From Frigoribacterium sp. VKM Ac-2836 (lineage in GTDB: Bacteria > Actinomycetota > Actinomycetes > Actinomycetales > Microbacteriaceae): DNA of 64,000 nt. The stretch lies in assembly GCF_013248995.1 (NCBI RefSeq), contig NZ_JABRPK010000001.1, positions 1 to 64,000 of the forward strand, read 5' to 3'. The notes under the pieces were generated by a model, which was not told the DNA's origin, ran no database searches, and was given only the letters and a program-made list of their open reading frames with translations. A program made the position numbers and the translations under genes. Positions 2,059-63,446 of this stretch are shown here, piece after piece (within the stretch, counting starts at the first letter, position 1; each line of letters starts with the position of its first letter).

Positions 2059-2809
2059 GCACGAGGGCAGTGCCGCCCGCCAGCAGGCCCGCGGCGAGGG
2101 CGCCGATCCCGGCGATCTGCCCGCCCGTGTACGCCAGGTCCCCGTCGGCGGCGGGTCGTGTGGCGCCCGACGGCCGTGGCGTCGGGTCCGAACCCGTTCC
2201 GGCACCGTCGGTCGGTGTGGGGGAGGGCACCGTGCCGGGCTCGGTCGGGACCGCGGTCGGCCCGTCCGTCGGCGGCGTCGGCTCGACCCCGGCGCCGGGC
2301 ACCGACCACGTCCCCGCGGTGAACGTGATCGGTGACGTGGCCGCCACGACGACGGACGACGGGACGCCGGACTCGACGACGAGGCACTCGAGCGTGAGCG
2401 TCGCGCCACCGTCTTCGACGCCACCCGCGACGACCTCCTCGAACGAGATCGCCATCGGCACCTCGACCGGCTGCCCCGTGACCACCGCGACGGTCGGCGA
2501 GGTGACGACCGTCGCGCCTCCTGCCGTCACCGAGAGCCGGGCGGCGTCGTCCGCGTCGGCCGGGCATCCCCCGGCGAGCAGCGCCGAGGCGAACGACGGA
2601 TCGGCGCGGGCGTCGCCCGACGTGACCGCGGAGCCGGTGGCGTCGCGCAGCACGAGCGGTGCCGGATCGGTGGGCGTCGGGGCGGCGAGGGCGGCACCGG
2701 GGCCGGCCAGTCCGGCGATCGTGCCGGCACCCCACACCGCGGCGACGAGCAGGGCACGTCCGGAGGCGCGCGAAGGGGAGCGGCGGACGACGGGGGCGGA
2801 GGAGGGCAT
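2036..2809 (-). CDS. Secreted surface protein with LAYTG sorting signal
   Basis: The protein has 257 residues. A basic N-terminus and hydrophobic core ending in ALAAP form a signal peptide (about residues 1-43). A soluble region with one pair of cysteines follows, then a Pro/Thr-rich linker (about residues 180-215). The C-terminus has LAYTG, a hydrophobic segment and RRRDRA, the arrangement of a sortase substrate. LAxTG is the motif used by class E sortases of actinobacteria (family knowledge), so the protein should be anchored to the cell wall. The start at 2809 is preferred over the upstream ATG because of the GAAGG five bases before it. Binding partner or activity unknown. Confidence 0.75.
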   Translation of the reverse strand: MPSSAPVVRRSPSRASGRALLVAAVWGAGTIAGLAGPGAALAAPTPTDPAPLVLRDATGSAVTSGDARADPSFASALLAGGCPADADDAARLSVTAGGATVVTSPTVAVVTGQPVEVPMAISFEEVVAGGVEDGGATLTLECLVVESGVPSSVVVAATSPITFTAGTWSVPGAGVEPTPPTDGPTAVPTEPGTVPSPTPTDGAGTGSDPTPRPSGATRPAADGDLAYTGGQIAGIGALAAGLLAGGTALVLRRRDRA

Positions 2810-2986
2810 CGGGACCTTCGGTGGGGGCGGTGGGCGTCCGTGGCGGGAGCGCACGGCGAGGCCTGGACTGTGGCGCACCGGGGGGAACGGGTCGTGAACG
2901 GCAGGGGTCGCGCCCGACCCCGACCGTTGGCCGGCGGTTCAGGCCCGCTGCCTACGGTCGGGGCGCCCGCCGACGAAAGTGATGCC

Positions 2987-4738
2987 ATGCCCCACGACCC
3001 CCGACCCGAGCAGCCCGCACCCCTCGACGAGGCCTCCAGCCCGGCCGCGCCGGGACGCGGTGGGGCCGAACGGGGTGCGCCGGGGCGGTCGGTCGTCTCT
3101 CGACGGACGTTCCTCGGGGCCTCGGTCGCCGCGACGGTCGTCGCGGGGGTCACGGCCCAGGGACTCGGGGGTTCGGGCCCCGCCCACGCCGCCGCCCCGT
3201 CGGCGCCCGTCGTCGTCGACCCGGCCGCGCTCTCGTGGTTGGTCTTCGACCACCACGTGCACTCGGTGTACTCGCACGACGCGAAGTACCCCATGACGAC
3301 GATCCTCGACCGGGCACAGCGCCACGGGGTCGACGCGATCGCCTTCACCGAGCACAGCAACAAGGGCCACGCCAACGTCGGCGGGGTGTTCAACGCCGCC
3401 CGCGAGATCGAGACGGCGCGGGCGGCGCGCCCCGACCTGCTCGTGCTGCAGGGGCTCGAGTGGTACATCCCCGGCGCCGAGCACGCCACCGTGCTCGTCG
3501 CGCCCGGTCCCGCGACCACCCGCGTGCTGCGCCGCTTCGAGCTGGACCACGACGGCAAGCTCAACGGCTGGGAGAAGCCGCGCCCCGGCACCGACGACGC
3601 CGCCGAGTGGCTCGTGCACGCCACCGACGCGATCGCCTGGCTCGGTGCCCAGAAGAGAGCGGGCGTCGTCGACGACGTGATCGTCCTGGCGAACCACCCG
3701 AGCCGCCTCGGCATCGACTCGCCCGGCGAGCTGCGAGCCTGGCAGGACGCCGACCCCGAGGTGTTCGTCGGCATGGAAGGGGCCCCCGGGGCCCAGGCCG
3801 GCGCGATCGCGGCGAACGCCACCGACCGCTCGCGTCGGGGCGAGTACGAGAACGCCCCCAGCGAGTTCTCGTTCCCCGGCTACCCCGCGGAGGCCTACCT
3901 GACCCACGGAGGCTTCGACTGGACGACGGCCGTCGTCGGCGGCGTGTGGGACTCTCTGCTCAGCGAGGGGCGGCGCTGGTGGATCACCTCGAACAGCGAC
4001 CTCCACCTCAAGGAGTCCGACTCGACGCGCGTGGGCGACTTCCCGACCGGGCCCGGCTGGGAGGCCGGTGCGACGCTCGCGAACTTCGACCGTGCCGGTC
4101 GTCGGCCCGATCCGATCGTCACGGCCACACCCCAGAACGGCGCCGACTTCTGGCCCGGCGAGTTCAGCAGGACCCACGTCGGGGCCGTCGACCGGACGTC
4201 CGCCGCCCTGCTCGACGCCATCCGCGCCGGCCGGCTCTGGGTCGACCACGGGCACCTCGTCGCCGGGCTCTCGGTCGTGCTCCGGGCAGCCGGCGGGCAG
4301 GAGGCGCAGGCCACCTTGGGCGGGACCCTCACCGTCCCGCGCGGCACCGCCCTCGAGCTCGTGGTCGACGTCGTGCCGACGACGACGCCCACCTCGCGGG
4401 GCACGACGCCGCGGCTCGCCCACCTCGACGTGATCCGCGGCCGGGTGACCGGACGCGCGGCCGACCGTGACGAGCAGCGCGCACCCGGCACCCGGGTCGT
4501 CGAGCTGCTCGACGTCTCCGATCGCTCCGCCACGGCGTTCCGCGTGGTGGTGCCGCTCGAGCCCGCGACCGAGGACGGCTACGTGCGACTGCGCGGCAGC
4601 GACGGCCGGGTGCACGGTGTGGGCCCGCTCGGCGCCGAGGTCGACCCCCGCGCACCCCAGCCGTACCCGGTCGCCCCGGCCGACCCGTGGGCCGACACCT
4701 GGTTGTACGCGAACCCGATCTTCGTCAGCGTGCGCTGA
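2987..4738 (+). CDS. Tat-exported PHP-fold metallophosphoesterase-like protein
   Basis: The protein has 583 residues. The N-terminus carries a twin-arginine signal (SRRTFLG, about residues 38-44) followed by a hydrophobic stretch ending at AHAAAP. The PHP fold follows, with metal ligands visible in HHVHSVYS, FTEHSNKG, GLEWYIPGAEH and ANHPS. Members hydrolyse phosphoesters with two or three metal ions (family knowledge); the substrate here is unknown. The C-terminal 200 residues look like a beta-rich domain. The start ATG at 2987 keeps the Tat signal intact. It is transcribed toward the RidA gene with a 35-bp convergent gap. Confidence 0.8.
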   Translation: MPHDPRPEQPAPLDEASSPAAPGRGGAERGAPGRSVVSRRTFLGASVAATVVAGVTAQGLGGSGPAHAAAPSAPVVVDPAALSWLVFDHHVHSVYSHDAKYPMTTILDRAQRHGVDAIAFTEHSNKGHANVGGVFNAAREIETARAARPDLLVLQGLEWYIPGAEHATVLVAPGPATTRVLRRFELDHDGKLNGWEKPRPGTDDAAEWLVHATDAIAWLGAQKRAGVVDDVIVLANHPSRLGIDSPGELRAWQDADPEVFVGMEGAPGAQAGAIAANATDRSRRGEYENAPSEFSFPGYPAEAYLTHGGFDWTTAVVGGVWDSLLSEGRRWWITSNSDLHLKESDSTRVGDFPTGPGWEAGATLANFDRAGRRPDPIVTATPQNGADFWPGEFSRTHVGAVDRTSAALLDAIRAGRLWVDHGHLVAGLSVVLRAAGGQEAQATLGGTLTVPRGTALELVVDVVPTTTPTSRGTTPRLAHLDVIRGRVTGRAADRDEQRAPGTRVVELLDVSDRSATAFRVVVPLEPATEDGYVRLRGSDGRVHGVGPLGAEVDPRAPQPYPVAPADPWADTWLYANPIFVSVR

Positions 4739-4773
4739 GCCTGCCGCGCCTCACCGTGCGGCGTGCGGCGACG

Positions 4774-5190
4774 CTACCCGGCGTGCCCCGGCGCGACCGC
4801 CGCGACGAACTCGATCTCGACCCGGGCACCCCTCGGCAGGGCGGCGACCTGGTAGGCGGCGCGGGCCGGGAGCACCTCGCCTCGGAACACCTCGGCGTAG
4901 GCCTCGTTCACCACGGCGAAGTCGGCGATGTCGGCCAGCAGCACCGTCGTCTTGACGACGAGATCGACGCCCGAGCCCGCGGCCTCGAGCACGGCGGCGC
5001 CGTTGCGCAGCGACTGGGCCGCCTCGTCGCGGACGTCCGGTCCGGCGAACTCGCCCGTGGCCGGGTCGATCGGCAGCTGGCCCGACACGAAGACGAGGTC
5101 GCCGACACGGACGGCCTGCGAGTACGGGCCGATCGCGGCCGGGGCCGCGTCGGTGTGCACGGCGCGGATGGGGCTCGTGTCGAGGGTCAT
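4774..5190 (-). CDS. RidA family deaminase (enamine/imine deaminase)
   Basis: The 138-residue protein has the usual RidA length and signature elements: AIGPYSQAV near the N-terminus, FVSGQLPIDPATGE, and the C-terminal PARAAYQVAALPRGARVEIEF with the substrate-binding arginine. RidA proteins hydrolyse reactive enamines and imines released by PLP enzymes (family knowledge). The ATG at 5190 overlaps the stop of the upstream aminotransferase by four bases, so the two are translationally coupled and the PLP enzyme is the probable source of the substrate. Last gene of a five-gene operon. Confidence 0.92.
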   Translation of the reverse strand: MTLDTSPIRAVHTDAAPAAIGPYSQAVRVGDLVFVSGQLPIDPATGEFAGPDVRDEAAQSLRNGAAVLEAAGSGVDLVVKTTVLLADIADFAVVNEAYAEVFRGEVLPARAAYQVAALPRGARVEIEFVAAVAPGHAG

Positions 5191-6350
5191 CGTCGTCCTC
5201 CCAGGACGGTCAGGGCCGCGTCGATCGCGGCCGGTGTGGTCGTGGCGTGCACGCTGAGACGCACGCGGTCGTCGCCGTGGACGGTCGCCGTGACGCCGGC
5301 GTCCTCGAGCCGGGCGCCGACGGCCGCGGCCTCGCCCGTGGGCACGCCCGCCACGACGAGCCCGGCCCGTCGGCTTCGCTCGACGGGCGAGAGCACGGGC
5401 ACCCCGGCGGCCTCGAGCCGGCCGATCAGGTCCCCTGCCGTGTCGGCCACGCGGGACGCGACGACGTCGACCCCGACCGACTCGAGCTGCTCGAGCGCCG
5501 TGGCCAGAGCCCCCGACGCGAAGGGCGACCCGTTGGTCACCGACAGTCGCTGCGCCCCCGGCAGCGGGGAGTGGGGCACGCCGTCGTAGCGCGAGGCGCC
5601 CTCGACGCCCGTCCACCCCCCGAGGACCGGACGGAGGCGCGCCAGGGCTCGCGAGGACAGCGCGACGAACCCGGTTCCCCACCCCGCCCGCAACCACTTC
5701 TGGCCGCCGACGACGAGGGCGTCGGCCAGCGTCCAGTCGGCGTCGAGGACGCCGAAGCCCTGGATGCCGTCGACGACGAGCAGGCGATCACCCACGGCCT
5801 CCCTCAGCCCGGCGAGGTCGGCGACGGTGCCGGTGCGGAAGTCGACCGCGCTCACGGCGACCGCCACGGTCTCGGGCCCGACCGCCTCGGCCACGCGCTC
5901 CGGCGTGACGGGAGCGAGCGGCTGCCCCGGGACGGCGGGCAGCGGACGCACGGTCGTGAGCCCGGCCTCTTCCGAGCGCCACCACGCGTAGAGGTTCGAC
6001 GGGAACTCGGCGCTGCTCACGACGACCTCGCCCCGCGGCAGACCGAAGGCGATCTGCATCAGCCCGAGAGACGTGCTGCCGGTGAGGGCCACGCCGTCAC
6101 GGTCGAACCCGGTGAGGCGCGACACCGCCGCGAGGGCACGCTCGTCCTCGGCGTGCAGGCCGGACGAGGGGACGCCCGCGCTCGCCGCGCCGGCGAGGCG
6201 ACCGATCATCTCGACGACGTCCCGCGACGGGGGCCCGTAACTGCCGAAGTTGAGGTAACCGACGGGCTCGCCGAACGAGGCGAGGTAGTCGTCGAGCGCC
6301 GAGCCCGCACGCGTGCCGGTGCCGGTGCCCGTCGGGGGACCCGACGTCAC
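5187..6350 (-). CDS. PLP-dependent class V aminotransferase / cysteine-desulfurase-fold enzyme
   Basis: The protein has 387 residues and the fold-type I PLP signatures of class V enzymes: GSTSLGLM (phosphate binding), the Asp of VVDGIQGFG and the Schiff-base Lys in [11 protein letters not shown] (about residue 221). The N-terminal [10 protein letters not shown] resembles isopenicillin-N-epimerase-like and EgtE-like branches rather than IscS. The substrate cannot be told from sequence; the neighbouring amino-acid transporter and RidA suggest an imported amino acid or amine. It overlaps the ABC ATPase stop and the RidA start by four bases each. Confidence 0.85.
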
Positions 6351-9150: not shown

Positions 9151-9190
9151 GGTCGAGCCTTTCGTGAGCGTCGTCGGTCATCGCAAGTTA

Positions 9191-9255: not shown

Positions 9256-9263
9256 CTGGAGCC

Positions 9264-10001: not shown

Positions 10002-10018
10002 GCGGCCTCACCGCAGGG

Positions 10019-12380: not shown

Positions 12381-12425
12381 CAGGAGGCGCGATGCTGGTC
12401 TCGAGGACCGGCGCCGCGCCTCCTG
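12381..12425 (-). terminator. Hairpin terminator built from an inverted GGAGGCGCG pair
   Basis: Arms CAGGAGGCGCG (12381-12391) and CGCGCCTCCTG (12415-12425) with extra pairing inside (GGTC/GACC). It lies 11 bp past the stop of the SDR gene. No T-tract is present, as is common in high-GC actinobacteria. Confidence 0.6.
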
Positions 12426-12435: not shown

Positions 12436-13116
12436 TCAGTAGTCGATGCGGCCCCGACGGTCGTGGAACTCACCGGTGGGTCCGTCGGACCCGAGCAGGG
12501 CGAGGGCGACGGTGGCGTCCGTGCCCTCGGTTACGGTCTGGTGGCCGCCGTGCCCGTTGAAGTCCGTCGCGGTGTAGCCAGGGTCGCTGACGTTGACCCG
12601 GACGGTCGGGAGGTTCTTGGCGTATTGCACGGTCAGTGCGATGACGGCTGCCTTCGATGACGCGTAGGGGACGGCGGCGACGGGGTACTCGTCGTGGCCC
12701 TCGGTGCTCAACCAGCGCGGCCAACCGACGCCAGAGGCGACGTTGACGATCACGGGACGTCGGGAGCGGTGTAGCAGCGGCAGAGCGGCCTGCGTCACGC
12801 GGACGAGGCCGACGACGTTGACGTCGAGCACCTCCTGCAGGCTCTCGGGGGTGAGGTCGTCGACGCCGAACGACGAACCAAGGACCCCCGCGTTGTTGAC
12901 CAGGACGTCGAGCTCGGGCAGGGAGTGGATCGCTGCGTCGACGCTCGTCTGGTCGGTGACGTCGAGCTGCACGGCGTGGGCGCCGAGGGCCCGGACGGCG
13001 TCGCCCGAGTCGAGGTCGCGCATGCCGGCGTACACGGTGTGGCCCGCCTCGAGCAGGCGGCGGGCGGTCTCGAGTCCGAGGCCCTTGTTGGCCCCGGTGA
13101 TGAGTGTGGTGGTCAT
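12436..13116 (-). CDS. Short-chain dehydrogenase/reductase (SDR)
   Basis: The protein has 226 residues. The Rossmann motif TGANKGLG (about residues 7-14) is followed by LDVTDQ, the structural NNAG and the catalytic PYASSK (Tyr about residue 155, Lys 159) with the upstream Ser in NVASGVG. The arrangement fits classical NAD(P)-dependent SDRs. The substrate is unknown. It stands alone on the minus strand, followed by a hairpin terminator. Start ATG at 13116; the overlapping upstream ATG runs into a stop after three codons. Confidence 0.85.
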   Translation of the reverse strand: MTTTLITGANKGLGLETARRLLEAGHTVYAGMRDLDSGDAVRALGAHAVQLDVTDQTSVDAAIHSLPELDVLVNNAGVLGSSFGVDDLTPESLQEVLDVNVVGLVRVTQAALPLLHRSRRPVIVNVASGVGWPRWLSTEGHDEYPVAAVPYASSKAAVIALTVQYAKNLPTVRVNVSDPGYTATDFNGHGGHQTVTEGTDATVALALLGSDGPTGEFHDRRGRIDY

Positions 13117-15293: not shown

Positions 15294-15399
15294 ACCCTCG
15301 CGAAGCCGGTCCCAGAAACCCCCCAGACACCGGATCGAGGAGGCGCGGGTCGGCTCGATCCCGCCGCTGGGCGGTTTCTGGGAGGGGCGCGACGAGCCT
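15294..15399. promoter_or_regulatory. Symmetrical divergent promoters with OmpR-like direct-repeat sites
   Basis: Each promoter has the 15-mer TGGGnGGTTTCTGGG (plus strand 15368-15382; minus strand 15325-15311), containing two CTGGG units 11 bp apart. Each is separated by exactly 11 bp from a -10-like hexamer (GAGCCT at 15394-15399; GAGGGT on the minus strand at 15299-15294). The start codons follow six and seven bases later. Between them lies a GATCGAG/CTCGATC inverted repeat (15333-15360). Confidence 0.6.
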
Positions 15400-15405
15400 C
15401 GAGCC

Positions 15406-16215
15406 ATGACCGAACTCGACCGACGACCCCTGGTGACGTCCCCGGGGGGACGACCCGCGCCTCCTGCCTCTCGTCCCGCTCGTCGGTCGGTCCGCCGCGA
15501 CGTCGGGATCGCGGCGGCGGGCGGGATCGGCGTCGTCGCCGTCGCCGCGGCCGGTCTCGCGATCACGTCGGGTGCCGGGGGAGTCGCGGCGGCCGACCTG
15601 GCCGTCGTCCAGAGCATCAGCGGGATGCACTCGCCTCTGCTCGATGCCGGGGCGCTGCTGATCGACCGCCTGCTCGGACCGCAGCTCGGGATGGCGCTCG
15701 TCCTGCTGTTCGCCGTCGCCGTCTGGGTGACGACCCGCCGAGTCGTGGAGGCCCTGACGGTCCTCGGCGTCGCCCTGCTGCCGTGGGCGGCGGCCGAGAC
15801 GATGAAGGTGGTCGTCGGGCGCGACCGACCCGACCCGCGCCTCCTGGTCGACCCCCTTCTGATCGAGCCGCACTCGTTCTCGTTCCCCAGCGGCCACACC
15901 GCCCTGGCGACCGGTCTCGCCCTGGCGATCGTGCTCGTCGTGAGGGGACGGCGTGCGTGGCGCCTGGTCGCCGTCGTGGCCGCGCTCGGCGTCGTCGTCG
16001 TGGCGGCGTCCCGCGTCTGGATCGGCGTGCACTACCCCACCGACACGGTCGCGTCGACGGTGCTCGGCTGCTCGGTCCTCGCGCTCGTCCTGCCCTCCTG
16101 GCGGCGGCTGGTCGACCGCTTCGACCCCGTCGACCGCCTCGACCGCTTCGACCGACGGACGACCATCCCACCCCTTGCCGCGACGGCACCCGACTCCGAA
16201 CGGAACCACCCATGA
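15406..16215 (+). CDS. PAP2-family phosphatidate/undecaprenyl-pyrophosphate phosphatase
   Basis: The protein has 269 residues and about six membrane segments. The three PAP2 motifs are complete: KVVVGRDRP (about residues 129-137), FPSGH (about 164-168) and SRVWIGVHYPTD (about 203-214), which hold the catalytic His residues. These enzymes remove phosphate from lipid phosphates such as undecaprenyl pyrophosphate or phosphatidate (family knowledge). The first gene of a four-gene unit with DedA and the two-component system. The start has no ribosome site; GAGCCT-N6-ATG suggests leaderless translation. Confidence 0.88.
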   Translation: MTELDRRPLVTSPGGRPAPPASRPARRSVRRDVGIAAAGGIGVVAVAAAGLAITSGAGGVAAADLAVVQSISGMHSPLLDAGALLIDRLLGPQLGMALVLLFAVAVWVTTRRVVEALTVLGVALLPWAAAETMKVVVGRDRPDPRLLVDPLLIEPHSFSFPSGHTALATGLALAIVLVVRGRRAWRLVAVVAALGVVVVAASRVWIGVHYPTDTVASTVLGCSVLALVLPSWRRLVDRFDPVDRLDRFDRRTTIPPLAATAPDSERNHP

Positions 16216-23511: not shown

Positions 23512-23552
23512 GACGCAGGAGGCGCGGTGCCCTCGCACCGCGCCTCCTCGTC
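23512..23552 (-). terminator. Terminator of the zinc importer operon, GGAGGCGCG inverted pair
   Basis: Perfect 14-bp arms AGGAGGCGCGGTGC (23517-23530) and its complement (23535-23548) around loop CCTC, extended by GACG/CGTC. It begins 17 bp after the stop of the AztD-like gene. Confidence 0.7.
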
Positions 23553-23568: not shown

Positions 23569-24798
23569 TCAGTCGCCCGTGGCCACGGCGATCTCGTTCG
23601 GCGTCACGTCGAGCTCGCGCGAGGACACCACCTCGCCCGTGGTCAGGTCGACGGCATGCACACTGTCCGTGGCGGGTTCGGTGACGTAACCGACGTCACC
23701 TGCGACGACGATCGCGGGGTGGGCGTCCTGCCACTCGGCCGGTCCCTCCCACGCGTCGACGACGGGCCACGAGGCCGTGAGCTCGCCGGTCGCGGCATCG
23801 AGCACGTGCACGGCGCCGTCGGTGCCGATCAGGTAGGCGAGGTCGCCCGGGCCGCGGGCCACCCCGCGGAAGGTGTACTCGACTCCCTCGGGCAGGTCGA
23901 CCACCTCGAGCGTCTCGGCGGCCGTGTCGATCACGGTGAGGGCGTGCAGCAGGTAGCCCTCGGCGTCGGGGTCGTCCTTGTGGTCTCCGACGACGAGCGG
24001 GCTGGTCTCGCTGACCCACGCGTTGCCCATGCGGCCGTAGGGCTGCGAGGGCGAGTCGAGCTTGGTGACGGTGCCGTCGTGGTAGACCAGCGCGCCGTCC
24101 TCGCAGCCGAACACGACGGCCTCGTCGGCCGCGGTGCCCTCTCCGTGGACGCCGGGGCACTGGTCGCTCTGGGCGACGACCGCGCCGTCCGCGTCGCGGA
24201 CCTCGATGCCCGTGCGGCCGTCCGAGTCGCCGACCGTCGTCAGGAAGGTGCCGTCCTCGAGCACGACCGAGACGCCGTGGTGCGCCTCGACGCCCTCCAC
24301 GGTTTCGACCGCGGGCAGGTCTCCCTCGGCGACGGCGTCGGTCAGGTCGGCGGACTCGAACACGGTGGTGTCGCTGGTGCCGTCGGCGTAGAGGACCGTC
24401 TTGCCGCCGTGCCGGACGACGTGGCCCGCGGTGTCGGCGCCGAAGACGAGGTCGGTGAGGGCGGGCTCGGCCGAGCTGCCGGCCGCGGTGTCGAGCACCT
24501 GGAAGCCCTCGCTCGTGGTGACCATGACGTGTCGGCCGTCGCCGGCCGGGTTGAGGCGCGTGAACTCCTCGGAGGTGAAGTCGCCGACGGTCTCGAGGGT
24601 CTCGCCGTCGAGCACGACGACGCGGCCCTCGGACGAGACCGCGAGGCGGGGACCGGACGAGGAGGCGCCGGTCGCCTCGTCACCGTCCGTCGCGTCGGAG
24701 GCGGTGCCGGGACCGCCGGTCGAGCAGGCCACGAGGGTCGCGGCGACGCCGAGGGCGAGCAGCGTGCCGCCCGCTCGTCGCAGGTGGGGGGTGCGCAT
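23569..24798 (-). CDS. aztD: AztD-type zinc metallochaperone, lipoprotein
   Basis: The protein has 409 residues. The signal peptide ends in a lipobox (LVAC, Cys about 25), then a Ser/Thr/Asp linker and a beta-propeller of repeated GDxxxYVTEP- or VxVLDGxTLE-type blades. His motifs EAHHGVSVV and GVHGEGTA are candidate zinc ligands. AztD hands zinc to the binding protein AztC outside the membrane (family knowledge). It is the last gene of the minus-strand importer operon, followed by a terminator hairpin. Confidence 0.82.
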   Translation of the reverse strand: MRTPHLRRAGGTLLALGVAATLVACSTGGPGTASDATDGDEATGASSSGPRLAVSSEGRVVVLDGETLETVGDFTSEEFTRLNPAGDGRHVMVTTSEGFQVLDTAAGSSAEPALTDLVFGADTAGHVVRHGGKTVLYADGTSDTTVFESADLTDAVAEGDLPAVETVEGVEAHHGVSVVLEDGTFLTTVGDSDGRTGIEVRDADGAVVAQSDQCPGVHGEGTAADEAVVFGCEDGALVYHDGTVTKLDSPSQPYGRMGNAWVSETSPLVVGDHKDDPDAEGYLLHALTVIDTAAETLEVVDLPEGVEYTFRGVARGPGDLAYLIGTDGAVHVLDAATGELTASWPVVDAWEGPAEWQDAHPAIVVAGDVGYVTEPATDSVHAVDLTTGEVVSSRELDVTPNEIAVATGD

Positions 24799-33874: not shown

Positions 33875-34999
33875 CTAGGCGAGCACCTCGCCCAGGTCGT
33901 ACGCCGCCGGCACCTCGAGCTGGTCGAAGCCGCACGAGCGCGCCTCGCGGTCGTCGCGCCACCGTTCGACCTGCACCGTGTGGCGGAACCGCGAGCCCTC
34001 CATCTGGTCGTACCGCACCTCGACCACGCGCTCGGGACGCAGCGGGACGAACGACACGTCTTTGCCCGACGAGAAGCGGCTGCGCTCGGTCTCGGCGTGC
34101 CGCACCTCGCCGTCGGCGTCGCGGTCGACGAAGGGGGCCAGCTCGTCGACGAGTTCGAGGCGACGGGCGTCCGAGAACGCGGACGCGCCTCCGACGTTGC
34201 GCAGCTCGCCCTGGGCGTCGTACAGCCCGAGCAGCAGCGACCCCACACCCGAGCCGCTCTTGTGCACGCGGTAGCCCAGCACCACCACGTCCGCGGTGCG
34301 GTGGTGCTTGACCTTGAGCATCGTCCGCTTGCCCGGAGCGTAGGAGGCGCGGGTCGGCTTGGCCACGACCCCGTCGAGCCCGGCGCCCTCGAACTCGGTC
34401 AGCCACCGACGGGCTACCGCGACGTCGTCGGTGGCCTGGCTGACGTGCAGGGGGTGATCCGCGCCTCCTGCCGTGCCGTCGGCACGACGGTCGGGGCCGA
34501 GGGTCTCGAGCAGCAGGGCGCGGCGGTCGGCGAACGGGGTCTCGAGCAGGTCCCGGTCGCCGAGGGCGAGCAGGTCGAACGCGACGAACATCGCGGGAGT
34601 CTCGACGCTGAGCTTCGCCACGCGTGACGCGGCCGGGTGGATGCGCTGGCCGAGGGCGTCCCAGTCGAGCCGCTCGTGACCCGGCTCGCCGGCGCGCACG
34701 ACGATCTCGCCGTCGAGCACGCACGGCCCCGGCAGCAGGTGGGTCAGGGCCTCGACCAGTTCGGGGAGGTAGCGGGTCAGCATCTTCGAGCCACGGCTGC
34801 CGATCTCGACCGTGAGCGGGGCGGGGGCGGTGGGGTCGGCGGCTGGGTCGACCGCGGCGCGCTCGGCGTAGACGATGCCGCGGAACCCGTCCCACTTGGG
34901 TTCGTAGAGGAGCCCGCCCTCGACGGAGTCGGGCTCGGGCACCTGGGCGACGGCCTTGGCGAGCATCGGGACGAGCGGGTCGGCGGCGGTCGGGATCAT
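33875..34999 (-). CDS. ATP-dependent DNA ligase
   Basis: The protein has 374 residues. Nucleotidyltransferase motif I, the lysine in EPKWDGFRG (about residue 35), is followed by motif III-like FDLLALGD, motif IV GLDGVVAKP and motif V KVKHHRTADVVVLG. The OB-fold completes the ligase. The length fits the LigC/LigD-type ligases of actinobacteria that act with the LigD polymerase in end joining (family knowledge). Its 3' end faces that gene with 12 bp between stops. Confidence 0.9.
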   Translation of the reverse strand: MIPTAADPLVPMLAKAVAQVPEPDSVEGGLLYEPKWDGFRGIVYAERAAVDPAADPTAPAPLTVEIGSRGSKMLTRYLPELVEALTHLLPGPCVLDGEIVVRAGEPGHERLDWDALGQRIHPAASRVAKLSVETPAMFVAFDLLALGDRDLLETPFADRRALLLETLGPDRRADGTAGGADHPLHVSQATDDVAVARRWLTEFEGAGLDGVVAKPTRASYAPGKRTMLKVKHHRTADVVVLGYRVHKSGSGVGSLLLGLYDAQGELRNVGGASAFSDARRLELVDELAPFVDRDADGEVRHAETERSRFSSGKDVSFVPLRPERVVEVRYDQMEGSRFRHTVQVERWRDDREARSCGFDQLEVPAAYDLGEVLA

Positions 35000-55558: not shown

Positions 55559-55642
55559 CTCGCCATCCTGGCAGCCCGGCCCCGGCCCCGGCCTCGCTGC
55601 CCTGGCAGCGCTGCCCCGGCCTCGCGGCCCGAACCCGAGCCG

Positions 55643-56419: not shown

Positions 56420-56475
56420 GGCGTGGGGTCCAATCGGTTGCTCACGCCAGGGTAGAGGACGAAGCGGCCCGGCCG

Positions 56476-56525
56476 CAGACGAGGAGGCGCGCTCCGGGAC
56501 TCCCCGGAGCGCGCCTCCTCGTCTG
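56476..56525 (-). terminator. Perfect 23-bp hairpin terminator of the fructose operon
   Basis: Arms 56476-56498 and 56503-56525 pair perfectly around ACTC. The stem contains an inverted GGAGGCGCG pair (56483-56491 and 56510-56518). It begins 5 bp after the fruA stop codon. Confidence 0.8.
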
Positions 56526-56530
56526 GTCGG

Positions 56531-58621
56531 CTACGCGGCGACGGGGCTGCGCTGACCGACGACCGAACCGGCCTGGCCGGCCTCGGCCGAGGCCTCGGTC
56601 CCGGCGGCGACACCGCGGCGGACGAACTTCTTGAGCAGGATGAGAACGAGAGCGCTCACCACGGTGCCCGCGAGGATGGCGACGACCCACATGCCGAGCC
56701 CGGTGATCGCGAAGAACACGAAGAAGCCGCCGTGGGGGGCCTGCGACGTGACGCCGGCGGCCATCGAGATGGCTCCGGTCACCGCGCCTCCGACCATGCT
56801 CGCGGGGATCACGCGCAGCGGGTCGGCCGCGGCGAACGGGATCGCGCCTTCCGAGATGAACGACGCGCCCAGCAGCCAGGCCGCCGTGCCGTTCGAGCGC
56901 TCGACCTGCGAGAAGCCCTTGCGGTACAGCACGGTCGACGCGAGGGCCATGGCCAGCGGCGGGACCATGCCGGCACCCATGACGGCGGCCATGATCATCA
57001 GCGGGGCGGGGTTGTCGGTGAGCGAGCCCGCCGACAGGCCGGCGACGGCGAACGAGTACGCGACCTTGTTGACCGGACCGCCGAGGTCGATGCACATCAT
57101 GAGGCCGAGGATGACGCCGAGCACGATCGCGCCGGTGCCGCTCAGACCGTTGAGGAAATCGGTCAGGGCGACGGTGAGGGCGGCGATCGGTCCGCCGAGC
57201 ACGAGCACGAGCAGACCCGAGGCGAAGATCGAGGCCAGCAGCGGGATGATCACGACGGGCATCAGACCGCGCAACCAGCGGGGTACGTCGGGCTTGCCGA
57301 TCCAGTAGGCGGCGAAGCCGGCGAGCAGACCACCGACGAGACCGCCGATGAAGCCGGCACCCATGAAGACGGCGACGGCACCGGCGACGAAACCGGGGGC
57401 GATGCCCGGTCGATCGGCGATGGCGTAGGCGATGTAACCGGCCAGGGCGGCGACCAGGAAGCCCATCGACAGGTTGCCGATCTGGAACGCGGCGGCACCG
57501 AGGAAGTAGATCAGGCCCTCGGGCGGCAGATTGAACAGCGAGTAGTCCGTGAGCACGGTGGCGGCGTTGCCCGCGATCTCGTAGCCCGAGAGCAAGAACC
57601 CGAGGGCGAGCAGCAGGCCACCGCCCGCGACGAACGGGATCATGTACGAGACGCCGGTCAGCAGCCAGCGCTTCAGTGACGAACCGAAGCCCTGCTTCTC
57701 GCCGGTCGAGCCCGCGGCCGTACCGGCGGCACCGGCGGCCGTGCCGCCCACGCGCACGGCGTTCGGGTCCTTCGCGGCGGCCAGCGCCTCCTTCACCATG
57801 GCGTCGGGAGCGTCGACACCCCGCTTGACCGGGCCGCGGACGACGGGCTTGCCCGCGAAGCGGCCCTGGTCGCGCACGTCGACGTCGACCGCGAAGATGA
57901 CGGCGTCGGCCTCGGCGATGACGGCCGGGTCGAGCGGGGTGACCTTGCCCGAGCCCTGAGGCTCGATCTGCAGGTCGGCGCCCAGGCGCTTCGCGGCGGC
58001 GACGAGGGCGTCCGCGGCCATGAAGGTGTGGGCGATGCCCGTGGGGCAGGCCGTGACGCCGACCAGCTTCGGGCGGCGCGCACCGTCGCCCGGGGCGTGG
58101 CCGGCGGACGAGGAGGCGCTGGTCGCCGCAGCCGCGGAGGTCGCGGTGGCGCCACGTGTCTCGGCGACCTCGCCGCTGACCTCGTCGTCGACCAGTGTCA
58201 CGATGTCGGCGGGCGTCTTCGCTGCGCGGAGGGCGGCCGTGAAGTCGTCGCGGATGAGGGCGCGGGCGAGGGTCGAGAGCACCGTCATGTGGTCTCCGTC
58301 GGCGCCCTCGGGCACGGCGATCATGAAGACGATGTCGGCGTCGCCGTCGGGGGCACCGAAGCCGACCGTCCGTGCGAGGCGTGAGAAGGCGAGCGTGGGC
58401 TCGGTGACCGAGGCCGACCGGGCGTGGGGGATCGCGATGCCGCCGGGGACGCCGGTGCCGACCGAGGCCTCACGGGTGATGGCGTCGTCGGCGAGCGAGT
58501 CGGCCGAGCCGGCACGGCCCGAGGCGGCCACGCGGGCGGCCAGGGCCCGGATGACGTCGGTCGACGTGCCGCCCAGGTCTTCGTCGAGACCGACGAGGTC
58601 GGTGCTGATGAGGGATGACAT
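56531..58621 (-). CDS. fruA: PTS fructose transporter subunit EIIABC
   Basis: The protein has 696 residues. The EIIA domain (about 1-155) has the phosphohistidine in GGIAIPHA (about residue 67). A Thr/Ala/Ser linker leads to EIIB (about 185-290) with the phosphocysteine in CPTGIAHT (about 192). EIIC (about 325-670) has multiple membrane segments and the typical FAITGLGMW region. It imports and phosphorylates fructose to fructose 1-phosphate. It is the last gene of fruR-fruK-fruA, 33 bp after fruK. Confidence 0.95.
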   Translation of the reverse strand: MSSLISTDLVGLDEDLGGTSTDVIRALAARVAASGRAGSADSLADDAITREASVGTGVPGGIAIPHARSASVTEPTLAFSRLARTVGFGAPDGDADIVFMIAVPEGADGDHMTVLSTLARALIRDDFTAALRAAKTPADIVTLVDDEVSGEVAETRGATATSAAAATSASSSAGHAPGDGARRPKLVGVTACPTGIAHTFMAADALVAAAKRLGADLQIEPQGSGKVTPLDPAVIAEADAVIFAVDVDVRDQGRFAGKPVVRGPVKRGVDAPDAMVKEALAAAKDPNAVRVGGTAAGAAGTAAGSTGEKQGFGSSLKRWLLTGVSYMIPFVAGGGLLLALGFLLSGYEIAGNAATVLTDYSLFNLPPEGLIYFLGAAAFQIGNLSMGFLVAALAGYIAYAIADRPGIAPGFVAGAVAVFMGAGFIGGLVGGLLAGFAAYWIGKPDVPRWLRGLMPVVIIPLLASIFASGLLVLVLGGPIAALTVALTDFLNGLSGTGAIVLGVILGLMMCIDLGGPVNKVAYSFAVAGLSAGSLTDNPAPLMIMAAVMGAGMVPPLAMALASTVLYRKGFSQVERSNGTAAWLLGASFISEGAIPFAAADPLRVIPASMVGGAVTGAISMAAGVTSQAPHGGFFVFFAITGLGMWVVAILAGTVVSALVLILLKKFVRRGVAAGTEASAEAGQAGSVVGQRSPVAA

Positions 58622-58654
58622 GGTGTTCTGCTCCTTGGGGTTGGGCGACGCTGC

Positions 58655-59623: not shown

Positions 59624-59682
59624 GCGGGTGCCTCCTGGCAGCGGTGCGGTGTCGTGCCACGAGGGGCGGGGCGGCGGGGTGC

Positions 59683-60471
59683 TCACGCGACGATCACCTC
59701 GACGTCGGCGAGCTCGAGCGCGTCGCCCAGGTCGGAGGCGGGGGGCGCGTCGGTGACCACGGTGTCGATCTCGGCCAGGCGTGCGAACCGGACCAGCGCC
59801 TCCTCGCCGTGTTTGGTCTGGTCGACCACGGCGACGACGCGGCGGCCGGCTCGGACGTAGGCCGACTTGACGGCCCCTTCGAACTCGTCGGGGGTGGACA
59901 GGCCGAAGCCGGCGCTGAGGCCGTTCGCGCCGACGAAGACGATGTCGGGGCGCAGGGCCTGGATCTGCTCGACGGTGCTCGTGCCGACGGCGGCGCTGGT
60001 CAGGCCGCGGACGCGCCCGCCGAGCAGGTGCAGATCGACGTGGGGGCTGTGCTGCAGCAGGGCCGCGATCGGGACGGCGTTCGTGATGACGGTGAGGACG
60101 GTGCCGGGCGTCGCCGGGGTCCAACGGGCGAGCTCGGCGGCGACCGCGGCCGTGGTGGTGCCGGCGTCGAGGGCGATCGATCCCGTGAAGGTCGGGGGCA
60201 CGAGGTGGGCGGCGGCCTGGGCGACCGAGGTCTTCTCGGGGCTGTGTCGGGTCTCGCGTTCGCTGAGGCTGAGCTCGCTGACGCTGGAGCGACCGGCGGT
60301 GACGGCACCGCCGTGCACGCGCTGCAGCAGGCCCGCCTGCTCGAGGGCGTCCAGGTCGCGGCGGACCGTCTCGGCCGTGACGTCGAGACGCTGGGCGAGG
60401 TCGCTGACCGACACCCGACCGGCCGAGCGCAGGGCTTCGGCGATCGACTCGTGTCGTTCGGTGGCGTACAT
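59683..60471 (-). CDS. fruR: DeoR-family fructose regulator
   Basis: The protein has 262 residues. HTH with VSDLAQRLDVTAETVRRDLDALEQAGLLQRVHGGAV (about residues 20-56); the DeoRC effector domain includes IALDAGTTTAAVAAEL and IVFVGANGLSAGFGLSTPDEFEGAVK. AGGAGG precedes ATG 60471; the upstream open stretch is not translated. The promoter at 60581-60609 is A-rich. It is the first gene of the operon and probably senses fructose phosphates. Confidence 0.92.
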   Translation of the reverse strand: MYATERHESIAEALRSAGRVSVSDLAQRLDVTAETVRRDLDALEQAGLLQRVHGGAVTAGRSSVSELSLSERETRHSPEKTSVAQAAAHLVPPTFTGSIALDAGTTTAAVAAELARWTPATPGTVLTVITNAVPIAALLQHSPHVDLHLLGGRVRGLTSAAVGTSTVEQIQALRPDIVFVGANGLSAGFGLSTPDEFEGAVKSAYVRAGRRVVAVVDQTKHGEEALVRFARLAEIDTVVTDAPPASDLGDALELADVEVIVA

Positions 60472-60580
60472 GCGACCTCCTCGTCGTCTCGCGGTGTTGC
60501 CGGCTCGTGCTGTCGGCACCTGTGCTGCTGGCGCCCGTGCTGCCGACGCCTGATCGGCGTCCTCGCGTGCCGGTGGGCCG

Positions 60581-60609
60581 ACTGTACGTGGCTTCCACAG
60601 AGAAAACAA
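60581..60609 (-). promoter_or_regulatory. Promoter of the fructose operon
   Basis: On the minus strand TTGTTT (60609-60604), a 17-bp spacer and TACAGT (60586-60581) form a promoter. The A-rich stretch just upstream, with repeated short motifs, is a candidate FruR binding region. Confidence 0.6.
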
Positions 60610-60732
60610 GACAAAAGCAGAAAAACGAAGAAGAACGCAGATCGTGCACGGGCGTGGCCGACCATGTCCGCAATGCGCACTTTCGGCGATCTGGCTAGTT
60701 CATCTAGCTATCCACCTGCCACAGTGATGCAT

Positions 60733-60777
60733 GTACCGGTTCACGGCGGTACGGGCACCGACTTCACGGGCGGTGCC
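60733..60777. repeat. Two adjacent inverted repeats upstream of the small-gene cluster
   Basis: GTACCG-N8-CGGTAC (60733-60752) is followed by GGCACCG-N10-CGGTGCC (60754-60777). They lie 45 to 89 bases before the first small gene and could be operators or a leader structure. Confidence 0.5.
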
Positions 60778-60821
60778 GCAGGTTCCTCAGGTGGCGCAGG
60801 GTCATCAGAAATGAGCAGAAC

Positions 60822-61136
60822 ATGAACATCAGCAGCACCTCCCTCCAGGGCCTCGGTCACGAGCAGCTCGTCTCCCTCGTCCGGGGAACCGTCGGCTCGG
60901 CGCGGCCCTCGGCCTCTCGTCCGACCACGGCTCGAGTCGACGCCGGTCTCTACCGTCGCGACCCCCGCGTCCCGGCCGTCCGCATCGAGACCTACCCCCG
61001 TCGTCGTCGGGCTCGCGTCGCGGCATCCGCCCTCGCCGCCCCGATCTCGGCGGCCGTGTCGGCCGTCGCCCGGGTCGACGAGCCCACCTACGCCGACTTC
61101 CTCGCGGCCGCCCCGGCCCACGCGATGTCGGCCTGA
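60822..61136 (+). CDS. Small basic protein, first of a three-gene small-protein cluster
   Basis: The protein has 104 residues. The N-terminus MNISSTSLQGLGHEQLVSLV is followed by an Arg-rich middle (about 28-66) and an Ala-rich helix (about 67-85) with an acidic tail (ARVDEPTYADFLAAAP). No family is recognised. Third positions are almost all G or C, so it is coding. The next small gene follows 10 bp after its stop. Confidence 0.6.
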   Translation: MNISSTSLQGLGHEQLVSLVRGTVGSARPSASRPTTARVDAGLYRRDPRVPAVRIETYPRRRRARVAASALAAPISAAVSAVARVDEPTYADFLAAAPAHAMSA

Positions 61137-61146
61137 GGCAGGCACG

Positions 61147-61239
61147 ATGACCTTCGCGCAGCGCATCCTCGCCGATCAGGTCGGCGACCACGTGTCGTAC
61201 TTCGACACCGCCCTCGACGACACCGACGACCTCGACTGA
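61147..61239 (+). CDS. 30-residue acidic peptide gene
   Basis: Thirty codons, ATG to TGA. The first half is helical (FAQRILADQVGDHV) and the end is acidic (LDDTDDLD). Nearly every third base is G or C, as in real genes here. The cluster context (10 bp after the previous stop, 11 bp before the next start) supports translation. Function unknown; the size suits a small regulatory or precursor peptide. Confidence 0.5.
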   Translation: MTFAQRILADQVGDHVSYFDTALDDTDDLD

Positions 61240-61250
61240 ACGGCCCGACC

Positions 61251-61361
61251 ATGAACTCTTCGCTTCCCTCGCTCGACACCCTCGTCCACCCCGACCTGCA
61301 CGACTACGTCACCGACCGCTACCCCTTCGTGGCGGGTCCGGTCGACGACGACCAGGTCTGA
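61251..61361 (+). CDS. 36-residue peptide gene, last of the small-gene cluster
   Basis: Thirty-six codons from ATG to TGA with G/C-rich third positions. The peptide begins MNSSLPSLDTLVHPDL, has an aromatic middle (YVTDRYPF) and ends in an acidic tail (VDDDQV). Both this and the previous peptide end acidic. No family is recognised. A terminator hairpin lies 105 bases downstream. Confidence 0.5.
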   Translation: MNSSLPSLDTLVHPDLHDYVTDRYPFVAGPVDDDQV

Positions 61362-61466
61362 TCCCTCCGGGCCTCGGCCCGGTGCACGACTTCGGACGGG
61401 CTGACGCCCGGCCCGTCGACGGTGCGTACCAGCGACCCGCAGCGCGGGACGCCGACGAGCACCCCA

Positions 61467-61502
61467 CGAGAACCCCCTCGCCCCACGGTGAGGGGGTTCT
61501 CG
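61467..61502 (+). terminator. Hairpin terminator
   Basis: GAGAACCCCCTC (61468-61479) and its exact complement (61490-61501), with extended C/G pairs, form a 12-14 bp stem. It follows the three small genes. Confidence 0.7.
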
Positions 61503-61578
61503 CGCGTGGACCGCGAGGCCCCGGGAGGCACGGTTCCGGTCAGCTGGTGACTAACGCCTCAGGTGGTTCTAGGCGTGG

Positions 61579-63255
61579 TCAGGGGGCGGCGTGACGCCCG
61601 ACGCGGGCCGGGACCGGCGCGACCGCCTCCGGGGCGCGACCCGACACGGCCGCCGCGACCGCCGCCTCCCGCGTCTCGTACATCGTCGGCAGGTCGTGAC
61701 CGCCCTCGGCCGTCTCGTAGCTCTGCAGCTCGATCTCGGCCAGGCGGGCGAACTCGGCCAGCTTGTCGGACGAGACGCTCTTGGCCTTGCGGGGACGCGT
61801 GTTGTGCAGGCAGAACGTACCGATCGCCTCGCCCGTGGACGAGTGGATCGGGTGCCCGGCGTAGAAGTAGCCGTGGTTGAGGTCGAGGTAGGGGTTGTCC
61901 TTGAACCGGTCGTCCTTGCGGGCGTCCTCGACGATCACGGGGGCGTCGGCCGCCACGGTCACGTCGCAGAACGTGAGCTCGCGGGGGATCGACACGGGCA
62001 GCAGCTCGGTGTTGACGGCGTAGTAGAGCTTCGAGCCGTCGAGCAGCGAGACGACGGCGACGTCGACGCCGAACTCCTTCTCGGCGCGGCGGGCCAGGTC
62101 CTGCAGGGTGTCCGACCCGCCCGTGCTCGCGAGTTCGACGAGCGTCTCGGCGCCCGACCACTCGAAGGTGGGCTCGGGCAGCACCCGGCGCGGACGGGCA
62201 GGAGGCGCGGTGTCGGTCGACGGAGCCGGCGCGGGTTCCGGCGCGGGCGGCCGGACCGCCTCGGCCCGGACGGCCTCGAGCCGTGCGGCTTCGGCCCGGA
62301 CGGCCTCGAGCCGTGCGGCTTCGAGTCGGGCCGCTTCGAGTCGGGCCGCGATCGGGTCGACGGCCGCGGGGGCGGTCGCCGGGGGCACCGGGCTCGTCGC
62401 CCCCGTGGGCGCCGGCGCCGCCACGGACGCCGCGAGTCGCGCCACCTCGAGCTGCGCGGCGACGCGCTCGGGCACCACCGGAACCACCGAGGTGCGTCCG
62501 ATGTGCTCCACGGTCTCACCGCGGCGCACCACGTCGAGGATCGGGGCGACCCGGTCGGCGACCACGGCACCCCACTGCCGGTACATCGTCTCGCAGCCGT
62601 GCGGTCGGCCCGGCTGGAGCTCGCCGGCCGGCAGGCGGAAGTACGAGGTGGACGGGTGCTGTGACGCGATCCGCTCGGTGATCTCGTTCATGCGGGCCGC
62701 GTGCCGTTCGGCGACCGACCCGAAGGGGTTGTCGAACCGCGTCACCGAGCGCACGGGCTGCACGCCGACCAGCACGATGCGGGCGGTCGGATGGACGCGG
62801 CGCGTGAGGTCGGTGACGAGCCTCGTGACGTCGCGCTGCCAGCCGTCGAGCGGGGTGAGCATGACGGCGTCGTTGAGCCCGAGCATCACGACGACCGTGT
62901 CGTACAGGCTGAGGTCGTGGTCGCCGATCCACGAGCGGGCCGAGCCGGCGTTCATCATCTCGTCACCGATGTAGTCGACCGAGCAGGCCCGACCGGTGCT
63001 CTTCGAGGTCTCTTTCGCGATCTGTCCGGTGAGCGCCTGCTCGTGACTCGTCACGCCGAACCCGTGGGTCGGGCCCGTGCCGATCAGCAGCACGGTGTCG
63101 GGATCGGGGGAGTCGGCCCGGTACGTCGGCCGGCCGCGAGGTGAGGGCACGTGCCGCGAGCGAGAGAGGGTCCACAGGTAGAACAGGCGCATGGCGGGGC
63201 GCAATCGTTCGTAGCTTCGCGTCGGGTGCGCGGGTGTGTCGACCGTCCTGGTCAC
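61579..63255 (-). CDS. SGNH hydrolase-like domain fused to a GAF domain
   Basis: The protein has 558 residues. An N-terminal SGNH/GDSL-like region (about 50-250) has the GTGPTHGFG and MLGLNDAV blocks. A helical linker (about 275-345) is built from ARLEAxR repeats with a Pro-rich end. A C-terminal GAF domain (about 370-520) contains FCDVTVAADAPVIVEDARKDDRF and GHPIHSSTGEAIGTFCLHN. The usual GDSL serine block (GxSxxxG) reads GTGPTHGFG, so catalytic function is uncertain. A cytoplasmic sensor-like enzyme is a plausible reading. It stands alone. Confidence 0.75.
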   Translation of the reverse strand: MTRTVDTPAHPTRSYERLRPAMRLFYLWTLSRSRHVPSPRGRPTYRADSPDPDTVLLIGTGPTHGFGVTSHEQALTGQIAKETSKSTGRACSVDYIGDEMMNAGSARSWIGDHDLSLYDTVVVMLGLNDAVMLTPLDGWQRDVTRLVTDLTRRVHPTARIVLVGVQPVRSVTRFDNPFGSVAERHAARMNEITERIASQHPSTSYFRLPAGELQPGRPHGCETMYRQWGAVVADRVAPILDVVRRGETVEHIGRTSVVPVVPERVAAQLEVARLAASVAAPAPTGATSPVPPATAPAAVDPIAARLEAARLEAARLEAVRAEAARLEAVRAEAVRPPAPEPAPAPSTDTAPPARPRRVLPEPTFEWSGAETLVELASTGGSDTLQDLARRAEKEFGVDVAVVSLLDGSKLYYAVNTELLPVSIPRELTFCDVTVAADAPVIVEDARKDDRFKDNPYLDLNHGYFYAGHPIHSSTGEAIGTFCLHNTRPRKAKSVSSDKLAEFARLAEIELQSYETAEGGHDLPTMYETREAAVAAAVSGRAPEAVAPVPARVGRHAAP

Positions 63256-63446
63256 GTGATGCTCCTCGGGTGTCTCGCGGTGTGTCGTCCCCCCGTCCCA
63301 GGCTAGGCAGCGGTCCGAAGCCGGGCTGCCCCCAATGCGGGTCGACGGTGGCCCCCCTTCTGGTCTCAGGCCCGGCCGGCCCCCGGGTCCGAGGCGTTCC
63401 GCGCGAACCTGGACGCCGGAGGCGCGGGGCGAGCAGGCTGGAGGGC

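What the first reader, a model, noticed from the sequence alone, without database searches (positions are those of the whole stretch)
2762..63426. Nonamer GGAGGCGCG heavily over-represented and used as inverted pairs in terminators
I count about 46 copies of GGAGGCGCG or its complement by eye: 24 on the plus strand and 22 on the minus. Examples are 2762, 6732, 12383, 12415, 15339, 15456, 16850, 18194, 23518, 23539, 28055, 34343, 45219, 50815, 56483, 56510 and 63418. At 36% each G and C, a simple base-composition estimate gives about five. Copies lie in both coding and intergenic DNA. Three inverted pairs form likely terminators (12381-12425, 23512-23552, 56476-56525). Equal strand use argues against a polar FtsK-type motif; the pattern resembles DNA uptake sequences of Neisseria, which also occur as terminator stems, or a Chi-like site. 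The role here is inference.
Basis: partly seen in the sequence, partly recalled or inferred. Interest (0 to 1): 0.75.

Follow-up and report, generated by a model that had tools for sequence, protein, structure and literature searches.

The report
Probable DNA-uptake tag in Frigoribacterium
A nine-letter DNA word is repeated nearly 1,900 times in this actinobacterium, far more than chance or codon use allows, and it behaves like the "self" tags by which some Gram-negative bacteria recognise their own kind's DNA for uptake; whether it works that way here has not been tested.

Summary
The window holds 48 copies of GGAGGCGCG (25+/23-; shuffles give 6.8); the genome holds 1,875 in 3.27 Mb against 100 of the reversed word. 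The genome is a Frigoribacterium (Microbacteriaceae). At least threefold excess occurs in 13 of 299 family genomes: 7 of 7 Frigoribacterium, 5 of 6 Curtobacterium, 1 of 5 of a third genus. Codon use does not explain it: 143 coding copies against 26 after synonymous shuffling, on both strands, in five of six frames. It shows no replication polarity and clusters just after gene ends, partly as hairpins, and is absent from a prophage. RecC is missing; a type IVa pilus operon, ComEA, ComEC and DprA genes are present. Best reading: a DNA-uptake-sequence-like motif in a Gram-positive, function untested. Many other genera carry a related word, GGATGCCG, suggesting dialects. Against: GGATGCCG abounds in genomes without a PilB-type ATPase, no receptor is identified, and here dprA is split by the prophage.

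The parts
2762..2770 (+). GGAGGCGCG copy, one of 48 in the window (inside the gene called at 2036-2809, -)
   Evidence: extended consensus AGGAGGCGCGG
12381..12425 (.). Inverted pair of the motif (12383 +, 12415 -): hairpin, 20-nt arms 85% complementary, 10 nt past the stop of the short-chain dehydrogenase gene 12436-13116 (-)
15339..15464. Two copies in inverted order, 117 nt apart: 15339 (+) intergenic between diverging genes; 15456 (-) near the start of the next gene (inside the gene called at 15406, outside a called gene)
23517..23548 (.). Inverted pair (23518 +, 23539 -): perfect 14-nt arms, 20 nt past the stop of gene 23569-24798 (-)
34184..34468 (.). Cluster of three copies (34184 -, 34343 +, 34460 -) inside the gene called at 33875-34999 (-): a coding cluster on both strands
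56476..56525 (.). Inverted pair (56483 +, 56510 -): perfect 23-nt arms, 4-nt loop, 5 nt past the stop of the PTS gene 56531-58621 (-)
63418..63426 (+). Last GGAGGCGCG copy of the window (intergenic, upstream of a gene called at 63447)

Best explanation
GGAGGCGCG (extended [A]GGAGGCGCG[G], with some changes tolerated) is a DNA-uptake-sequence-like motif of Frigoribacterium. Proposed mechanism: a sequence-selective pilin or other surface DNA receptor binds the motif in free DNA, the type IVa pilus (PilB, PilT-like ATPase, PilC, major pilin, three further pilin-like genes, prepilin peptidase, PilM and two more, one operon in this genome) pulls the DNA in, ComEA and ComEC carry one strand across the membrane, and DprA/RecA recombine it. 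Motif-bearing fragments are taken up more often, so recombination spreads and maintains copies over the genome in both orientations, in permissive codons and next to gene ends, where inverted pairs also make 3' hairpins. Shown: the enrichment, its codon independence, symmetry, position preferences, lineage restriction, and presence of the genes. Inferred: that the pilus takes up DNA, that the motif is what is recognised, and which protein recognises it.
For: Genome-wide excess 1,875 vs 100 reversed. At least 3x over the reversed word with over 100 copies in 13 of 299 family genomes: 7 of 7 Frigoribacterium (6.7 to 18.8x), 5 of 6 Curtobacterium (3.7 to 4.2x), 1 of 5 of genus g55 (3.2x). None of the 274 genomes of the order sample outside the family reaches 3x; the highest that I see is about 2x. 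Coding 143 vs 26.4 synonymous-shuffle; frames sense 35/2/29, antisense 40/21/16; reversed-word control in the same genes 10 vs 21 shuffled. No polarity in G110: the best of the tested ori/ter placements gives 54.5% leading, below the random mean of 57.1%; a simulated 75% bias gives 65% or more. Intergenic density is higher between converging and tandem genes than between diverging ones in both species examined; of 91 intergenic copies with a flanking gene end 65% lie within 60 nt of it, random places 38%. Inverted +- pairs 20-60 nt apart: 10 of 16 in this genome, 9 of 11 in Curtobacterium. A 15.8-kb prophage stretch has 0 copies where the genome rate predicts 9.0. Single-base changes within the GGAGG core are at 0 to 1.8 times expectation, while several changes at positions 7 and 10 of the 11-mer and at its ends are 5 to 20 times enriched. 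Type IVa pilus operon, ComEA and ComEC, DprA. PilB-type ATPase in 18 of 18 genomes tested from the three genera (13 of these 18 meet the enrichment threshold).
Against: No transformation data; one search on Frigoribacterium and natural competence found 0 papers. The PilB-type ATPase also occurs in 6 of the 21 genomes tested from other genera, none of which has this motif in excess, and ComEC is in 50 of 50 genomes, so neither is diagnostic. No separate ComP-like pilin: in the four Frigoribacterium genomes searched both N-methyl hits lie in or next to the pilus operon. In the second Frigoribacterium species inverted pairs are not clearly preferred (4 of 11 at 20-60 nt). In Curtobacterium (four genomes, 240 kb) the coding excess is marginal (28 vs 17, shuffle maximum 27 of 50) and density is highest in intergenic DNA. 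Only 56 of 234 aligned coding comparisons keep the word between species. Scarcity is not confined to foreign DNA: a housekeeping stretch, L014, has one copy in 20 kb. In the window's own genome dprA is split by a prophage.
Confidence: 0.62

Rival explanations
1. A Chi-like site: a helicase-nuclease that resects broken DNA ends (here AdnAB-like) recognises the word and switches to recombination.
For: High copy number, oriented word, kept better than matched 9-mers at codons with the same amino acids (54 of 91 vs 36.8%). An AdnAB-like tandem nuclease pair is present in 12 of 12 genomes.
Against: No leading-strand bias; no RecC in 39 of 39; the AdnAB-like pair is also in both genomes of genus g51, which have only 38 and 41 copies of GGAGGCGCG (16 and 22 reversed) and no excess of GGATGCCG; excess near gene ends and hairpin pairs is not expected of Chi (recalled).
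Confidence: 0.12
2. A binding site of a chromosome-organising or regulatory protein that spread over the genome.
For: Genome-wide spread, strand symmetry, lineage-restricted word.
Against: No candidate protein was sought; lower density between diverging genes and excess at gene ends does not fit a promoter-binding regulator; no polarity, so not an FtsK guide.
Confidence: 0.13
3. A transcription-terminator hairpin family that spread by copying, with the coding copies as by-product.
For: In Curtobacterium the intergenic density is six times the coding one (0.80 vs 0.13 per kb) and 9 of 11 close pairs are inverted.
Against: In Frigoribacterium most copies are coding, 77 antisense and 66 sense, and the coding number alone is far above the codon-aware null; hairpins lack a U-tract.
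Confidence: 0.08
4. Codon, amino-acid or composition bias of a 73% G+C genome, or ribosome-binding sites (the word contains GGAGG).
For: The word is G+C rich and contains the Shine-Dalgarno core.
Against: 143 vs 26 synonymous-shuffle, 16 codon-order shuffle; five of six frames; 286 of 299 family genomes without a threefold excess; only 3 sense and 3 antisense copies within 30 nt upstream of 326 called starts.
Confidence: 0.02

Closest known systems
DUS and its dialects in Neisseriaceae (PMC3630211, passages read; ComP receptor)
   Same: Thousands of copies, oriented word, strict core, dialects that follow phylogeny within one family, type IV pilus and ComEC genes present.
   Different: Actinomycetota, single membrane, 73% G+C; no ComP-like receptor identified; no uptake data.
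Uptake signal sequence (USS) of Pasteurellaceae (PMC12616744, passages read)
   Same: 9-base word, hundreds to thousands of copies, inverted repeats with a terminator role, two dialects in a family, minor-pilin receptor proposed.
   Different: Unrelated word and phylum; receptor not identified here.
Tad/Flp-pilus-dependent transformation of Micrococcus luteus (PMC4322843: listing and abstract start; PMC6370729: passages)
   Same: Actinobacterial natural transformation with ComEA and ComEC.
   Different: M. luteus uses a Tad pilus; no uptake word came up in the passages seen; here a type IVa pilus operon is present.
Chi sites (RecBCD, AddAB; recalled)
   Same: Short oriented word repeated over the genome.
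   Different: No replication polarity here and no RecC.

Membership tests
DNA uptake sequence (DUS/USS) | Large genome-wide excess of one short word over composition and codon use | tested here: met
DNA uptake sequence (DUS/USS) | Both orientations alike, no replication polarity | tested here: met
   (20 stretches of one single-contig Frigoribacterium genome)
DNA uptake sequence (DUS/USS) | Inverted pairs as gene-end hairpins | tested here: met
   not clear in the second species G110 (4 of 11)
DNA uptake sequence (DUS/USS) | Depleted from recently acquired DNA | tested here: inconclusive
   0 copies in 15.8 kb of one prophage, one case; a housekeeping stretch L014 has only one copy
DNA uptake sequence (DUS/USS) | Dialects that follow the family tree | tested here: inconclusive
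   GGAGGCGCG in the sister genera Frigoribacterium and Curtobacterium; GGATGCCG at 5x or more in 48 of 84 other genera, first-listed genome of each; same function not shown
DNA uptake sequence (DUS/USS) | Type IV pilus, ComEA, ComEC, DprA in the genome | tested here: met
   dprA is split in the window's own genome
DNA uptake sequence (DUS/USS) | Sequence-specific receptor pilin | tested here: inconclusive
   Only pilins in or next to the pilus operon found; binding not testable
DNA uptake sequence (DUS/USS) | The word raises uptake or transformation | not testable with these tools
   needs experiment
Chi site | Leading-strand bias | tested here: not met
Chi site | Cognate helicase-nuclease that responds to the word | tested here: inconclusive
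   RecC family PF04257 in 0 of 39 genomes, E. coli control rings; AdnAB-like pair present, its response to the word not testable
FtsK-orienting motif (KOPS) | Polarity from origin to terminus | tested here: not met

The most novel reading that the evidence does not exclude
The Microbacteriaceae family speaks a DNA-uptake 'language' with dialects: an ancestral word GGATGCCG in many genera (up to 4,831 copies in one genome) and GGAGGCGCG in the Frigoribacterium-Curtobacterium branch, sharing the frame GGA[T/G]GC; this would be a first self-tag system for transformation in Gram-positive bacteria (first as far as I recall and my searches show) and could work with more than one kind of pilus.
Probability: 0.33. 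Interest if true: 0.9.

Novelty: new variant of a known kind. Interest (0 to 1): 0.77.

Why it matters
DNA uptake words are known from two Gram-negative families (Neisseriaceae, Pasteurellaceae; that no others are known is recalled). A Gram-positive case with a type IVa pilus operon would show that self-tagging arose again, point to natural transformation in these actinobacteria, and give a simple tag to raise transformation of strains that are hard to engineer. It also makes the question 'how do dialects switch' testable in a family with two related words.

Tried and rejected
Chance, composition and codon bias: rejected. Ribosome-binding site: rejected. FtsK polarity: rejected. RecBCD Chi: no RecC in 39 of 39. 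ComEC and DprA as markers of motif genomes: useless, present in all 50 and all 16 genomes tested. An extra ComP-like pilin: none seen away from the pilus operon in the four Frigoribacterium genomes searched. GC skew to place the origin in G110: too noisy, so many placements were tested instead. Structure prediction of pilins was not run, as it could not show sequence-specific binding. The papers search for the words themselves found 0; it can only find them printed as free-standing words. A search for Chi, Actinobacteria and AdnAB (18 papers, 10 listed) and passages of PMC12192639 and PMC5030088 gave no statement on a Chi site for AdnAB.
Full report
Observation. GGAGGCGCG occurs 48 times in the window, 25 on + and 23 on -. 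Dinucleotide shuffles give 6.76 on average and never more than 14 in 100. It is the strongest 9-mer by an order-3 Markov model (48 against 1.9). The whole genome (3,273,901 bases, 10 contigs) has 922 + and 953 -, against 46 and 54 of the word read backwards. They have no U-run.

Which organism. The ComEC core from the window's genome is 87% identical in protein to that of Frigoribacterium sp. Leaf8, whose 20.7-kb locus holds 18 copies. One member of genus g32 (G214) is identical over its ComEC locus to Curtobacterium pusillum. The third genus, g55, remains unnamed. The names of the other members of g1 and g32 follow from the tool's genus labels.

Not codon use. In 364 kb of this genome (window plus 15 stretches) I count 143 coding and 60 intergenic copies, 0.49 and 0.87 per kb. 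Shuffling synonymous codons within genes gives 26.4 (maximum 41 of 200 shuffles), shuffling whole codons 16.3 (maximum 28 of 200). Frames: sense 35, 2, 29 and antisense 40, 21, 16; the one poor frame would need the codon AGG. The reversed word gives 10 against 21 shuffled. Only 3 sense and 3 antisense copies lie within 30 nt upstream of 326 called starts.

Anatomy. In 1.04 Mb of sequence from eight Frigoribacterium genomes AGGAGGCGCGG occurs 248 times, 4.1 expected; changes within GGAGG are at 0 to 1.8 times expectation, whereas C to T at position 7 is 13.6-fold and G to T at position 10 is 20-fold enriched, and both end positions are tolerant. Flanks beyond the 11-mer carry little information, mainly a C three bases further on.

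Positions. No polarity: in 20 stretches of the single-contig genome G110, 91 + and 98 -; over the tested ori/ter placements (arcs of 7 to 13 of 20 stretches, all starts) the leading share is at most 54.5%, the random mean being 57.1% and a simulated 75% bias giving at least 65.1%. Intergenic density in G000 is 2.02 per kb between converging genes, 1.77 tandem, 0.77 diverging; in G110 2.01, 1.07, 0.93. With the first gene calls G000 gave 2.36, 1.87, 0.66. Of 91 intergenic copies with a neighbouring gene end, the median distance to it is 44 nt, 95 nt for random intergenic places. Close pairs (20-60 nt): G000 10 of 16 inverted (+-), Curtobacterium 9 of 11, G110 only 4 of 11.

Foreign DNA. One 20-kb stretch (L012) has no copy. 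Its 15.8-kb right part encodes a serine integrase, terminase, portal, head and tail proteins; the genome rate predicts 9.0 copies, its own composition 0.24. This is one case; two other stretches also have few copies (L014 one, L018 five) and L014 holds gyrase-like housekeeping genes by my reading of its translations, so scarcity is not limited to foreign DNA.

Distribution. In 299 genomes of the family (85 genera), 13 have at least three times the reversed-word count with over 100 copies: 7 of 7 Frigoribacterium (1,355 to 2,043 copies), 5 of 6 Curtobacterium (631 to 941; the sixth 362 against 254) and 1 of 5 of g55 (1,064 against 337). Of 297 genomes of the order sample 274 lie outside the family; none reaches threefold. 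A ComEC tree of 30 genomes puts Frigoribacterium and Curtobacterium together (support 93/92, below the tool's star threshold) and g55 apart, so g55's case may be separate. In Curtobacterium (G031, G214, G163, G295; 240 kb) the coding excess is marginal (28 against 17, maximum 27 of 50 shuffles) and the density is 0.13 per kb coding, 0.80 intergenic.

A second word. Other genera carry GGATGCCG: in 20 Microbacterium loci it has 310 coding copies against 80 synonymous-shuffled, 0.89 per kb coding and 0.91 intergenic. Taking the first-listed genome of each of the 84 other genera, 48 have at least five times the reversed-word count with over 100 copies, 66 at least three times. One genome has 4,831 copies against 248 reversed. 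Frigoribacterium is near background for it (382 to 506 against 242 to 291). Genus g51 (two genomes) has no excess of GGATGCCG (84 and 92 against 118 and 120) and few GGAGGCGCG (38 and 41 against 16 and 22). In one complete genome, G106, whose first gene looks like dnaA by my reading, it shows 254 leading and 285 lagging copies in 20 stretches, the terminus taken as half-way. Close inverted pairs of its hexamer GGATGC (under 60 nt) are 15 of 20 in G063, 51 of 142 in G106, 7 of 21 in G001, 14 of 38 in G102. Outside the family the ratio lies mostly between 1 and 4, up to about 8, so part of it is codon bias. The shared frame GGA[T/G]GC suggests dialects, but GGATGCCG abounds in genomes without a PilB-type ATPase (G106, G258, G057, G142), and G106 has no N-methyl pilin hit. 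So if both words serve uptake, more than one pilus type must be involved; or they are different things.

Machinery. The window's genome has a type IVa pilus operon, beside RNA polymerase and ribosomal protein genes by my reading of the translations: PilB with MshEN domain, PilT-like ATPase, PilC, major pilin, three further pilin-like genes, prepilin peptidase, PilM and two more (genes without a family hit are named by position). The PilB-type ATPase (E below 1e-130) is in 24 of 39 genomes tested: 18 of 18 of the three genera, 6 of 21 others. ComEA (HHH and SLBB domains) lies directly upstream of ComEC. ComEC is in 50 of 50 genomes, DprA in 16 of 16. RecC is absent in 39 of 39; an AdnAB-like tandem pair is present in 12 of 12 (AdnAB is my reading of two neighbouring frames with PDDEXK_1 hits). 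Two minor pilins of G000 are 40 to 57% identical to those of two other Frigoribacterium and 31 to 32% to Curtobacterium G295, as a fast-changing receptor could be, but many surface proteins change fast.

Evolution. In aligned orthologous codons 56 of 234 comparisons keep the word; where the amino acids are the same 54 of 91 do, against 36.8% of 71,435 comparisons of other 9-mers with the same G+C count (comparisons overlap and are not independent). The word ranks 128th of 1,185 such 9-mers with 20 or more comparisons. So sites turn over, with mild retention.

Literature. Searches: DNA uptake sequence with Microbacteriaceae (0 papers); with Actinobacteria (7 listed; by titles and abstract starts none is on this); uptake sequence with Actinobacteria, natural transformation and overrepresented (0); natural transformation, Micrococcus luteus and Tad (15); the words themselves (0); type IV pili with Curtobacterium and competence (2); three of uptake signal sequence, Gram-positive, type IV pilus, overrepresented (40, of which 15 listed); Frigoribacterium with natural competence (0). 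None of what I saw reports such a motif in this family. I read passages only of PMC3630211, PMC12616744, PMC6370729, PMC12192639 and PMC5030088. PMC12616744 states that USS/DUS motifs are often inverted repeats with a secondary role as terminators, and that both have dialects.

Verdict. The finding is sound and more interesting than stated. I hold a DUS-like role at 0.62. What would change my mind is named under the decisive steps.

Noticed in passing
L012, L278, L279 (own genome, contig 1, about 603.8-622.9 kb): dprA, a gene of natural transformation, is split in two by a prophage of about 18.5 kb whose serine integrase begins right after the left half; the other 15 of 16 genomes tested each have a full-length match in one piece. 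It recalls the comK prophages of Listeria (recalled).
   Followed up: partly
Microbacteriaceae genomes, e.g. G106, G258; L186-L205: A second word, GGATGCCG, common across the family with up to 4,831 copies per genome; in G106 no replication polarity, in Microbacterium loci enriched beyond codon use.
   Followed up: partly
L206:18384 to L207:11413: Type IVa pilus operon in an actinobacterium, placed between rpoB/rpoC-like genes and an rpsL-like gene by my reading.
   Followed up: partly
L216:10797-14267: ComEC reading frame of 1,156 residues ends in a DNA polymerase III delta C-terminal domain: an apparent ComEC-HolA fusion.
   Followed up: no
L137-L139 (Curtobacterium G214): A recurrent hairpin built of GGAGGCGCGGTGCC and its complement; 12-mers from it are counted six to eight times over both strands of 60 kb.
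   Followed up: no
G051, G121 (genus g51): A genus with little of either word and no PilB-type ATPase, which keeps ComEC, DprA and the AdnAB-like pair: a possible natural negative control.
   Followed up: no
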